Shown here in pieces: positions 60,114 through 64,000 of a DNA stretch of 64,000 nucleotides (positions are counted from its first letter, which is position 1; the number at the start of each line of letters is the position of its first letter). The notes beneath the pieces are model-generated. The model searched no databases. It was given only the letters and a program-made list of their open reading frames with translations, and was not told the DNA's origin. The stretch covers positions 5,449,001 through 5,513,000 of the forward strand of contig NZ_CP030265.1 in the NCBI RefSeq assembly GCF_008843145.1, read 5' to 3'. The position numbers were made by a program, and so were the translations under genes. This stretch comes from Skermanella pratensis. GTDB lineage: Bacteria; Pseudomonadota; Alphaproteobacteria; Azospirillales; Azospirillaceae.

Positions 60114-61700
60114 ATGCCCATCGGACCAACGACCGGCGGTTCCCGAAAGCACGCCATGCCGATATCGGATCTCCTGGCCGAGTATTTCACGGTGACCGGC
60201 GACGTCATCATGGTGACGGAGACGGGGCCCCTGGACGAACCCGGCCCGTTGATCACCTACGTGAGTCCCGCCTTCGAGCGCCTGACCGGCTATCCCGCCG
60301 AGCACGCCGTGGGCCGGTCGCCGCGGTTCCTGCAGGGCGGCGGGACCGACCGGGCCGCTCTGGCGCGCATCCGGAGCGCGCTCGAGCGGCGCCAGCCCAT
60401 CCGGGAGGACCTGCTCAACTATCGTCCCGACGGCAGTCCCTTCTGGATCGAGCTGGCCATCCATCCCATCACCGACGCGCGTGGAAAGCTCCAGTGCTTC
60501 CTGAGCGTGCTGCACGACATCACGGAGCGGAAGCGCATCGAGGCCATGCTCCGGGACGCCGAGAGCGAGGCGCGGCAGGCCCGCCGGGTGGCCGAGGAGG
60601 CCACTCTGTCGCGGTCCAGGTTCTTCGCCGCGGCGAGCCACGACCTGCGCCAGCCCTATCAGGCGATCCGGCTGCTCCACCAGCTCCTGGCGGACCGGCT
60701 GGAGGACCCCGCCCAGCGCGCCCTCTCCGAGAAGCTGGGGGAGGCGATCCAGGCGGGAGAGTCCCTGCTGAACGTCCTGCTGGACGTCTCCGCGCTGGAG
60801 GCGGGAACCATCCTGCCGCGCATGGACGACGTCGCGGTGGACGTCCTGCTGACCCGGCTCGCCCACGAGATGGAACCGCAGGCCCAGGCGGCCGGCCTGC
60901 GGTTCCGGGTCCACCCGTGCCGGGCCTCGGTGCGGAGCGATCCGGTGCTGCTCCAGCGGATGATCTCCAACCTTCTCAGCAACGCCCTGCGCTACACGCC
61001 GTCCGGAGGCATCCTGCTCGGCTGCCGGCGGCGGGGCGACGCGGTCCGCATCGAGGTCTGGGACACCGGGATCGGGATTCCGGAACACCGCCTCGGCGAG
61101 GTGTTCGAGGATTTCATCCAGCTCGGCAACCCCGAGCGCGACAGGACCCGGGGCCTGGGGCTGGGGCTCGCGGTGGTGGCGCGCATGGCGAAGCTGCTGG
61201 ACCATCCGGTCGAGGTCCGCTCCGTGCCGGGACGCGGCTCGATGTTCGCCGTGACGGTGCCGCTGGCGGAACCCCGCGCCGCCGCCGCTTCACACGCCGC
61301 GGCCATGCCCGGGAAGCGCAGCCTGGAGGGCGGGACCGCCGTCGTGGTCGACGACGATCCCATCGTCCTGGAGAGCCTTGGCCTGGTGGTCGAGAGCTGG
61401 GGCATGTCGGCGGTCCGCGTCGCCAGCCTGGACGAGCTGCCCGCAGCGCTGGCCCGCGTCTCCCGCCCTCCCGACCTGATCCTGGCGGATTACCGGCTCC
61501 AGGGCGACCGCAGCGGGTCCGACGCCGTGGAGATGGTTCGAAGCCATTACGGGACGACGGTCCCGGCGCTGCTGCTGACCGGGGACACCCATCCCGACCG
61601 GCTCCGGGAGGCGGCGGCCCACGGCTACCGCCTCCTGCACAAGCCGATCCATCCCGGCGTGCTGCGGGAGCAGGTGGAACTGCTGCTCGCTCCGGCCTGA
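60114..61700 (+). CDS. hybrid histidine kinase (PAS-HisKA-HATPase-receiver)
   Basis: Cytosolic hybrid kinase of 528 residues. A PAS/PAC domain (about 25-140) has the LOV-like wording YVSPAFERLTGYPAEHAVGRSPRFLQG (split: ITYVSPAFERLTGYP, VGRSPRFLQG). It has Gln-Gly where true LOV domains have the flavin-binding Cys, so photochemistry is unlikely. A coiled linker leads to the H-box FFAAASHDLRQPYQAIRLL (His near 180), the N-box LLSNALRYTPSG and the G boxes DTGIGIP and GLGLGLAVV. A receiver (about 410-525) with VVDDDP and Asp in LILADYRLQGD ends it. No output partner is adjacent. Confidence 0.92.
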   Translation: MPIGPTTGGSRKHAMPISDLLAEYFTVTGDVIMVTETGPLDEPGPLITYVSPAFERLTGYPAEHAVGRSPRFLQGGGTDRAALARIRSALERRQPIREDLLNYRPDGSPFWIELAIHPITDARGKLQCFLSVLHDITERKRIEAMLRDAESEARQARRVAEEATLSRSRFFAAASHDLRQPYQAIRLLHQLLADRLEDPAQRALSEKLGEAIQAGESLLNVLLDVSALEAGTILPRMDDVAVDVLLTRLAHEMEPQAQAAGLRFRVHPCRASVRSDPVLLQRMISNLLSNALRYTPSGGILLGCRRRGDAVRIEVWDTGIGIPEHRLGEVFEDFIQLGNPERDRTRGLGLGLAVVARMAKLLDHPVEVRSVPGRGSMFAVTVPLAEPRAAAASHAAAMPGKRSLEGGTAVVVDDDPIVLESLGLVVESWGMSAVRVASLDELPAALARVSRPPDLILADYRLQGDRSGSDAVEMVRSHYGTTVPALLLTGDTHPDRLREAAAHGYRLLHKPIHPGVLREQVELLLAPA

Positions 61701-62828: not shown

Positions 62829-63060
62829 TTCCGATTCCTTGTGCATTCCTGAAAGGTCGAGGATGTTGGTCCGCGATGCGACTTCGCACCTGCGAGATGG
62901 CGACCGCGGAGGCAACCGGCAAGGGCCGGCGTCGTTCCAAGGGGCTAGCCCCGACGCCATGGCCGCTCCGTCCTTGTTCCTTAAAAATTTATTTAAATTC
63001 TGGATTAGCCTCGATCGCGTAGGAGAACCCGTTGAAACATCCAATGACAGGAGTTGCGCG

Positions 63061-63312
63061 ATGGAGAACGACGATCTGGAGAAAGGCGCGGGCGACAAGC
63101 TCGAGATGGAGCGGCGGAAGTTCCTGGGTCAATGCGGGCGCTTCGCGATCGCCACGCCGCCGGCCATCACCCTGCTGATGTCGACCAGCCTGACGTCGCA
63201 GGCGATCGCCAAGTCGGGCGGCAAGGGCCACCCCAACAACGGGTACGGCAACGGCCCGCGTGACGGCGTCCCCGGAAAGTCCTGGAAGAACCACGGCGAC
63301 AAGTACCGCTGA
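63061..63312 (+). CDS. short peptide with twin-arginine-type leader, possible modified-peptide precursor
   Basis: An 83-residue protein. An acidic start is followed by ERRKFLGQCGRFAIATPPAI (17-36) and LLMSTSLTSQAIAKSG, which look like a Tat-type signal or leader. The last 30 residues are Gly/Asn/Pro/Lys-rich (GKGHPNNGYGNGPRDGVPG). I recall similar small proteins beside PqqD and HPr-kinase-like genes, but no function for them. The gene lies 48 bases upstream of just such a protein here. It may be a precursor that its neighbour modifies, or a small exported protein. The ATG at 63061 is preferred to upstream frames. Confidence 0.65.
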   Translation: MENDDLEKGAGDKLEMERRKFLGQCGRFAIATPPAITLLMSTSLTSQAIAKSGGKGHPNNGYGNGPRDGVPGKSWKNHGDKYR

Positions 63313-63404
63313 AGACTCCCGGCCCCGTTTCGAGACGCACCAGCGCATGGAAACCATCTGATGATCGCCGAGGGCGTATCTCTTGCCTTCATCGGGGGCA
63401 CAAG

Positions 63405-64000
63405 GTGCTCTTCAACGAGGCCAGGCAGGAACTGTTCGAGCTGGACGACGGGATGGCGTTCGTCTGGAACCGCCTGACCGAAGGGACCGCGATCGACCGC
63501 ATCGCCGAAGAGGTGGCCGGTCGCGGCCTGCCCGACGGGCAGGTGCGCGCCTGGCTGGACCATGCCGTCTCCGAATGGACCCGCCTGGGGCTGCTCCGGT
63601 CGCCGGCCCTCCGCCAGCGCCTGGGGATCGGCGGGGCATGCATCGAGATCCGCTACGCGACCGCCGCCCTCGCGGAGTTCGCGGCACCGGACTTCAGGCA
63701 TCTGGAGGCGGCGGAGACGGCGGAGAGCGGTCAGGACGGTCGGGTCCCGGATTGCCGACTCGACCTGGCGGAGGAGGACGGCGCGGTCATGATCCGCCGC
63801 GGCGCGGTCGATTTGGCGACCTGCCGGCGGGACGAGATCATACCCGCCCTGAGGGGAGCCCTCACCCTGGAGGCGCTCGGACGGGGACGCTACGAGGTGG
63901 CGCTCCATGCCGCGACGGTCGCCGCAGGCGGCCATGCCCTTCTGCTCAGCGGCTGCCCGGGAGCCGGCAAATCGACGCTGGCCGTGGCGCTGGCCCATTC
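63405..64000 (+). CDS. PqqD-like/HPr-kinase-like protein, 3' end off window
   Basis: N-terminal 198 residues of a protein cut by the window edge. Residues 1-75 resemble PqqD-type peptide-binding winged helices (FNEARQELFELDDGMAFVWN, RIAEEVAGRGLPDGQVRAWL). The later part ends in Walker A LLLSGCPGAGKSTLAVALAH (near 181), the nucleotide site of HPr-kinase/phosphorylase-like proteins. GTG at 63405 is the only usual start in this frame. A better start, ATG 63361 after GGAAA, reads MIAEGVSLAFIGG but is one base out of frame; a sixth G in the run at 63394-63398 would join them. PqqD/HprK-like proteins occur in peptide-modification clusters. Confidence 0.75.
   Translation, partial: MLFNEARQELFELDDGMAFVWNRLTEGTAIDRIAEEVAGRGLPDGQVRAWLDHAVSEWTRLGLLRSPALRQRLGIGGACIEIRYATAALAEFAAPDFRHLEAAETAESGQDGRVPDCRLDLAEEDGAVMIRRGAVDLATCRRDEIIPALRGALTLEALGRGRYEVALHAATVAAGGHALLLSGCPGAGKSTLAVALAH

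What the first reader, a model, noticed from the sequence alone, without database searches (positions are those of the whole stretch)
63061..64000. Possible peptide-modification locus: short twin-arginine-type peptide followed by a PqqD/HPr-kinase-like protein
The sequence shows an 83-residue protein with RRKFLG, a hydrophobic stretch and a Gly/Asn/Lys-rich tail, 48 bases before a protein with PqqD-like N-terminus and Walker A SGCPGAGKST. PqqD domains deliver peptide precursors to modifying enzymes, and HPr-kinase-like proteins phosphorylate some lasso peptides. That the small protein is the substrate is inference. The right edge cuts the locus, so cyclase, protease or transporter genes may follow.
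Basis: partly seen in the sequence, partly recalled or inferred. Interest (0 to 1): 0.75.

Follow-up and report, generated by a model that had tools for sequence, protein, structure and literature searches.

The report
Peptide paired with a peptide-binding kinase
A soil bacterium carries a three-gene set - a tiny protein with an export-signal-like start, a kinase fused to a peptide-grabbing domain, and a nucleotidyltransferase - that recurs together in many related bacteria, so the tiny protein is probably the target these enzymes modify, though no modification has been shown.

Summary
The small ORF (63061-63312) and the PqqD/HprK-like protein are real. Past the window edge a third gene follows, an NTP_transf_5 nucleotidyltransferase (PF14907, E 8.5e-31). 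The held genome has no lasso-type leader peptidase match and no asparagine-synthase match near the locus, so this is not a lasso cluster. The kinase profile matches a lasso-peptide recognition protein (TbiB1) at its N-terminus and HPr kinase at its C-terminus. In 385 sampled genomes of the class a fused kinase is in 9; 8 also have a peptide by search, and the ninth has one cut by a contig end; in 6 of 9 the two are neighbours. All 27 plasmid records with this kinase have a peptide within 2 kb. The peptides share a gap-free leader (RRxFLxxCGxFAxxTPPxxxLLS...AxA), then a Ser at position 35 in 47 of 58 distinct copies; tails vary. Beside unfused HprK-related kinases another RR-leader peptide family recurs. 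Best reading: the peptide is the kinase's substrate, phosphorylated and then extended by the nucleotidyltransferase; modification, site and export are inferred. The window's own kinase is frame-shifted near its start relative to two relatives.

The parts
63049..63053 (+). AGGAG, ribosome-binding-site-like sequence before the peptide ORF
   Evidence: read directly
63061..63312 (+). small peptide ORF, 83 aa (P0003)
   Evidence: homologues
63112..63213 (+). conserved 34-residue leader of the peptide (R18 to K51): RRxFLxxCGxFAxxTPPxxxLLS...AxA
   Evidence: 28 peptides aligned without gaps
63214..63216 (+). codon of Ser52, 35th residue counted from the RR; candidate acceptor of the kinase (inferred)
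   Evidence: Ser at this place in 47 of 58 distinct peptides
63217..63309 (+). variable tail of the peptide
63361..64000 (+). RRE(PqqD)-HprK-like fusion gene, cut by the window edge (ends at window position 64451 = G000:C1:5513451); conserved-frame GTG at 63405
63394..63398 (+). G run at which the window's kinase frame is shifted relative to relatives G001 and G002
63948..63977 (+). Walker A of the kinase, SGCPGAGKST

Best explanation
The three genes form a peptide-modification module. The N-terminal PqqD-type domain of the fused protein (an RRE) binds the conserved leader of the small peptide; the HprK-type domain phosphorylates a Ser of it, most likely the conserved Ser just after the AxA at the leader's end (Ser52 here); the PF14907 nucleotidyltransferase then adds a nucleotide or sugar to that phosphate, as reported for the lasso peptide pseudomycoidin; the modified peptide is exported by a Tat-type route and cut after the AxA, leaving a short hydrophilic tail with the modified Ser near its new N-terminus. 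Shown by sequence: the three-gene arrangement, its recurrence, the conserved leader, the conserved kinase residues. Inferred: binding, phosphorylation, its site, the second modification, export and cleavage.
For: Recurrence: fused kinase (over 140 bits) in 9 of 385 class genomes, peptide (E <= 1e-3) in 15, both in 8 (Fisher p 5e-12; leaving out the 4 genomes whose kinases built the profile, 4 of 5, p 1.9e-6); the ninth, G391, has a peptide's start right after the kinase, cut by the contig end. Plasmids: 27 of 27 kinase records have a peptide within 2 kb (15 read; 12 by listed coordinates); the nucleotidyltransferase is in 15 of the 15 read. Domain identity: best solved-structure matches of the kinase profile are TbiB1 (lasso RRE, positions 11-91, E 1.5e-5) and, for the other half, HPr(Ser) kinase 3tqf (187-236, E 1.3e-4) with His, GKS and DD aligned; these residues are invariant in 8 fused kinases. 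Leader: 34 gap-free residues, RR in 28 of 28, G9 28, P17 27, A31 27, then Ser in 27 of 28. A genome may hold several peptides and one fused kinase (G068, G460, G438). Beside unfused HprK-related kinases another RR-leader family occurs: in 17 of 35 such genomes, v 34 of all 385 (p 3e-11; without the 7 seed genomes 10 of 28, p 3.5e-6). Precedent: lasso kinases phosphorylate a core Ser, and the pseudomycoidin nucleotidyltransferase adds hexoses to the phosphate (PMC8498205, passages). TatC is present.
Against: Nothing biochemical was tested. The known lasso kinases act on the C-terminal Ser; the Ser proposed here is internal. That Ser is not at position 35 in 11 of 58 peptides; most of these have one 1-5 places earlier, but the G372 peptides and one of G159 have none at positions 29-37. 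The Tat reading rests on a recalled motif; no Tat-signal model in NCBIfam or Pfam matched any of 15 peptides at E <= 1. Some genomes have the peptide and no strong fused kinase (G194, G202, G372). The fused kinase is not next to a peptide in 3 of the 9 class genomes: G438 (nearest about 50 kb), G159 (other contigs) and G312 (about 100 kb; the peptide there is next to a second kinase). Half of the genomes with the second leader family, 17 of 34, are not among the 35 with an unfused kinase. The RRE assignment is below Pfam's cut-off for the window's own protein, and the AlphaFold model was too poor to use (pLDDT 51). The window's kinase is frame-shifted.
Confidence: 0.55

Rival explanations
1. 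The peptide is the kinase's substrate, but phosphorylation regulates it rather than building a modified product: for example it gates export, cleavage or a role in exopolysaccharide production, and the nucleotidyltransferase reverses or tunes this.
For: HPr kinases proper are regulatory (established knowledge). Several cassettes lie among polysaccharide genes: Leisingera caerulea (annotated export gene and rfbF), Parasedimentitalea (annotated glycosyltransferase and lipopolysaccharide gene) and, by reading ORFs, the Azospirillum loci L056 and L058. The conserved Ser lies just after the AxA where a signal peptidase could cut.
Against: Sinorhizobium meliloti Ak57 and Ensifer canadensis show no polysaccharide genes in the annotated neighbourhood, nor did I see any beside the window's cassette (by eye). 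An RRE fused to the kinase is typical of peptide-modifying enzymes.
Confidence: 0.2
2. A lasso or other cyclised peptide cluster whose remaining genes lie elsewhere in the genome.
For: PqqD, HprK and nucleotidyltransferase types all occur in lasso clusters (PMC8498205); one of 8 fused kinases matches a lasso PqqD chaperone model. Asparagine-synthase-family genes exist elsewhere in the genome, as in 13 of 14 control genomes.
Against: No PF13471 leader peptidase in the held genome (that search rang in only 3 of 14 control genomes, and the contig, 5.87 Mb, is smaller than the 7.8-8.5 Mb of same-genus genomes, so replicons may be missing). No asparagine-synthase match near the cassette. No such gene is annotated beside the cassette in the four annotated plasmid loci.
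Confidence: 0.05
3. Neighbours without functional link: the peptide is an ordinary small secreted protein that happens to sit by the kinase.
For: Peptides without a fused kinase exist (G194; many Sinorhizobium records). Leaders resemble ordinary Tat signals; 4 of 15 class hits lie in long frames, one of them (G413) reading like a TRAP-type binding protein.
Against: Co-occurrence p 5e-12 in 385 genomes, 27 of 27 plasmid records, order and strand that vary while the set stays together, and a parallel pairing of another leader family with unfused kinases.
Confidence: 0.1

Closest known systems
Lasso-peptide tailoring kinase and nucleotidyltransferase (paeninodin kinase; pseudomycoidin K and N)
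   Same: HprK-type kinase plus nucleotidyltransferase encoded with a small peptide; PqqD-type recognition domain
   Different: no leader peptidase match in the genome and no cyclase near; RRE fused to the kinase; precursor leader looks like a Tat signal with TPP in its middle; candidate Ser internal, not C-terminal
HPr-rel-A kinases (NCBIfam TIGR04352, HprK-related kinase A)
   Same: all 8 fused kinases match this model; unfused relatives in the class often sit by small RR-leader peptides
   Different: 72.6 bits against a cut-off of 200; fused RRE; no paper on this family was found
DUF2063 RRE with DUF2282 precursors
   Same: an RRE protein paired with precursors that begin with a secretion signal (PMC12710340, section 7 read)
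   Different: Sec signal there, RR leader here; no kinase in that account
SynChlorMet cassette (NCBIfam TIGR04249 ScmC, TIGR04248 ScmD)
   Same: weak matches of the G438 fused kinase to both models
   Different: far below cut-offs; gene content of that cassette is recalled, not tested

Membership tests
Lasso peptide clusters | transglutaminase-like leader peptidase (PF13471) | tested here: not met
   0 matches in the held genome at E <= 0.01; the control rang in 3 of 14 genomes
Lasso peptide clusters | asparagine-synthase-like cyclase in the cluster (PF00733) | tested here: not met
   4 matches in the genome, none near the cassette
Lasso peptide clusters | PqqD-type recognition domain | tested here: met
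   profile best matches TbiB1, E 1.5e-5; 7 of 8 members match PqqD; the window's own protein is below the cut-off
HPr-rel-A kinase (TIGR04352) | score at or above the curated cut-off of 200 bits | tested here: not met
   72.6 bits
HPr(Ser) kinase/phosphatase (TIGR00679) | score at or above the cut-off of 240 bits | tested here: not met
   16.9 bits
HprK-type kinases in the wide sense | His, Walker A Lys/Ser and Asp pair aligned with a solved HPr kinase | tested here: met
   alignment to 3tqf; invariant in 8 members; that these are the catalytic residues is recalled
NTP_transf_5 (PF14907) | score above the gathering cut-off | tested here: met
   107.8 v 31.2 bits, model positions 2-249 of 249
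RiPP systems | conserved leader and variable core | tested here: inconclusive
   leader 57% mean identity without gaps v 46% for tails aligned with gaps and 32% for the stretch before RR; the measures are not equal, one tail was typed short, and the contrast is modest
RiPP systems | enzymatic modification of the peptide | not testable with these tools
   needs mass spectrometry
Tat-exported proteins | Tat-signal model match | tested here: not met
   no Tat model at E <= 1 for 15 peptides in NCBIfam or Pfam (that the libraries hold a general Tat model is recalled); RRxFL and AxA read by eye; TatC present

The most novel reading that the evidence does not exclude
HprK-related kinases across Proteobacteria are dedicated kinases of a so far unnamed class of small RR-leader peptides: the kinase marks the Ser at the leader's end and, where the nucleotidyltransferase is present, that phosphate becomes a sugar- or nucleotide-phosphate on an exported peptide, perhaps the anchor or primer of a surface glycan where the cassette lies in polysaccharide loci.
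Probability: 0.3. Interest if true: 0.85.

Novelty: new variant of a known kind. Interest (0 to 1): 0.68.

Why it matters
HprK-related kinases of the HPr-rel-A type are named in NCBIfam, but my full-text search for those names found no paper. A recurring small partner peptide, with a leader and a candidate Ser, gives a concrete substrate to test, in tractable bacteria such as Sinorhizobium and Azospirillum. If right, it adds a peptide-phosphorylating class of RiPP-like systems with a secretion-signal-like leader.

Tried and rejected
Lasso reading: set aside and on gene content. AlphaFold model of the A. rugosum kinase with 4 sequences: mean pLDDT 51, not used for any fold search. Viral contigs: no relative of the peptide. 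NCBIfam and Pfam: no family for the peptides (the hits at E <= 1 were scattered and look like chance; one group-B peptide matched a formate-dehydrogenase-region TAT target at E 0.019 and a His-Xaa-Ser repeat model at 1e-4, both below cut-off). Conserved tail Ser (DGxPGxS) as the acceptor: set second, because G002 has Pro there while keeping the Ser at position 35, and many tails lack it; it is not excluded. A loose six-frame filter for RR peptides gave mostly noise; I kept seven candidates with a shared RLGL...P...AxA pattern, chosen by eye, and tested them. Hits dropped before a count: four peptide hits in frames of 206-396 aa (G249, G287, G307, G413) were left out of the stricter test (11 of 385, overlap 8, p 1.3e-13, and p 2e-7 without seeds); the unfiltered test is the one given as evidence. 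Group-B matches above E 1e-5 (16 of 50 genomes) were left out of the group-B count. The class-wide searches scored only 5 (kinase), 13 (peptide) or 12 (group B) candidates per genome, so absences are soft. Many of the 27 plasmid records are near-copies; in NZ_CP015882 the peptide is split over two frames, in NZ_CP121310 it matched in two pieces, and the Parasedimentitalea peptide was found only by the profile, not by the BLAST searches. The 58 peptides are those passing a leader profile (E <= 1e-8) and a motif filter. The ORF filter is imperfect: it missed the nucleotidyltransferase; a second reading is.

Full report
What is there. The window is G000:C1:5449001-5513000 of a 5.87-Mb contig, from the same family as Azospirillum rugosum (G083:C3 has the contig length of NZ_JAGINP010000003.1). 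The 83-aa ORF at 63061-63312 is preceded by AGGAG. After 48 bases comes ATG 63361, but its frame follows the relatives' protein for only 13 codons and stops after 38; the PqqD/kinase frame has GTG 63405 as first usual start. The same stretch is in one frame in two same-genus relatives, so the window's copy is frame-shifted in the G run 63394-63398, by error or in fact. The kinase ends at window position 64451 and a 333-aa nucleotidyltransferase (PF14907, 107.8 bits against a cut-off of 31.2) can start in an ATGA overlap with its stop. A patatin-like gene lies divergent upstream. Further downstream I saw, by eye, a cupin-like and a peptidase-like protein and others of no apparent link.

Parts of the kinase. 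The profile of 8 fused kinases finds TbiB1, a lasso-peptide recognition protein, for positions 11-91 (E 1.5e-5) and HPr(Ser) kinase for 187-236 (E 1.3e-4), with the His, GKS and DD aligned and invariant in the 8. The window's protein scores far below the cut-offs of TIGR04352 and TIGR00679.

Not a lasso cluster. PF13471 has no match in the held genome; PF00733 has four, at contig positions 0.21, 0.59, 0.67 and 2.14 Mb, against 5.51 Mb for the cassette. The contig is smaller than same-genus genomes (7.8-8.5 Mb), so a missing replicon cannot be excluded.

Relatives. Two of four same-genus genomes have the same peptide-kinase pair (G001, G002; G003 and G004 do not); the nucleotidyltransferase follows in G001. 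In the family the peptide is found in 8 of 82 genomes at E <= 0.01, two of them weak (G079, G093). Azospirillum rugosum and A. canadense carry peptide, kinase and nucleotidyltransferase among what read as polysaccharide genes, and the MAG bin98 (G012) has a kinase and nucleotidyltransferase with a convergent peptide.

Co-occurrence. In 385 genomes drawn from the class the peptide is found in 15 at E <= 1e-3 and a fused kinase of more than 140 bits in 9; 8 have both (p 5e-12). Four of the 9 kinases had been found by their peptide and built the profile; without them it is 4 of 5 (p 1.9e-6). The ninth, G391, has the first residues of a peptide behind the kinase, cut by the contig end. Peptide and fused kinase (or a fragment of it) are within 2 kb in 6 of the 9 (G000, G460, G265, G167, G391, G447) and apart in G438, G159 and G312. 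Three genomes (G194, G202, G372) have a short peptide and no strong fused kinase. On plasmid records the kinase is in 27 at E <= 1e-5 and the peptide in 92 at E <= 0.1. All 27 have a peptide within 2 kb: 15 read in full and 12 by listed coordinates; many are near-copies, so the independent lineages are fewer. The nucleotidyltransferase is in all 15 read. At least 65 peptide records have no kinase match; 71 of the 92 are Sinorhizobium, pSymB of S. meliloti 1021 among them, and chromosomes are not in that collection as a rule. In S. meliloti Ak57 the cassette stands beside murA, hisD and infA. In 398 genomes drawn from the phylum the peptide is in 10 at E <= 1e-4, three of them (G491, G748, G750) outside the class, each with kinase and nucleotidyltransferase beside it.

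The peptide. In 28 peptides the 34 residues from RR align without a gap: RR 28, F4 26, G9 28, A12 27, P17 27, A31 27 of 28, followed by Ser in 27 of 28. Over 58 distinct peptides found in the held loci the Ser at position 35 is kept in 47; the 11 exceptions come from G491, G748, G750, G159, G372, G312, G447 and Parasedimentitalea, and most of them have a Ser one to five places earlier. Tails differ: GNG-rich with DGxPGxS and often a terminal DxxR, Lys/Arg-rich, or Cys-rich in tandem (G159).

A wider pattern. Beside some unfused HprK-related kinases of the class stand small peptides of another leader family (RRxxLxRLGLxA...P...AxA) with repetitive tails. A profile of seven of them hits 34 of 385 genomes at E <= 1e-5; 17 of these are among the 35 genomes with unfused kinases, 17 are not (p 3e-11; without the seven seeds 10 of 28, p 3.5e-6). 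Eight of those ten lie within 2 kb of the kinase by the listed coordinates. In G239 and G396 I saw peptide and kinase with neither a nucleotidyltransferase- nor a PqqD-like ORF beside them (by eye in a filtered list).

Mechanism. Reported precedent: lasso kinases phosphorylate the C-terminal Ser of the core, and a nucleotidyltransferase adds hexoses to that phosphate in pseudomycoidin (PMC8498205, passages seen); an RRE family is paired with precursors that start with a secretion signal (PMC12710340, section 7 read). By analogy the RRE binds the leader, the kinase phosphorylates a Ser, probably the one behind the AxA, and the nucleotidyltransferase extends it. None of these steps was tested. 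Tat export is suggested by RRxFL and AxA, recalled motifs; no Tat model matched; TatC is present.

Literature. Full-text searches for HprK with PqqD, nucleotidyltransferase, lasso or Tat terms, for TIGR04352 and for PF14907 showed no paper on this pairing in the listings seen (two listings were capped: 15 of 47, 10 of 22); subscription papers are mostly outside that library.

Noticed in passing
63394-63398: The window's kinase gene is out of frame with its start ATG, unlike two same-genus relatives; resequencing would tell error from mutation.
   Followed up: partly
60114-61700: A NahK/ErcS-type hybrid histidine kinase lies two genes upstream; an orphan peptide of Azospirillum canadense (L057:7160-7516) also stands beside an ORF that reads like a histidine kinase.
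   Followed up: no
L129:7081-9282: In G312 one 733-aa ORF holds a nucleotidyltransferase-like part (by eye) and the PqqD-kinase part (profile match), which would link the activities physically.
   Followed up: no
L101:7427-8338: Three tandem peptides in G159 share the leader but have Cys-rich tails (CEPCSTCTPCD type).
   Followed up: no
L207, L208, L209, L210: Four genomes of one genus (g276) have 3 to 6 peptide matches each, some apparently broken copies; of these four loci two have a kinase nearby.
   Followed up: partly
L174: A g276 peptide has the tail GNNGVGNGTDPQPPGNPPINDGSGTGPGNPGNRPN, a different tail type behind the same leader.
   Followed up: no
L149: The 3.7-Mb record CP090106.1 called pSymB carries murA, hisD and infA, so it looks like a chromosome under a wrong name.
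   Followed up: no
L046:6407-6676: In G010 a weakly matching peptide (E 0.001) about 1.3 kb from a kinase-like hit ends right after the leader (ALALSGE), that is leader plus Ser-Gly with almost no tail.
   Followed up: no
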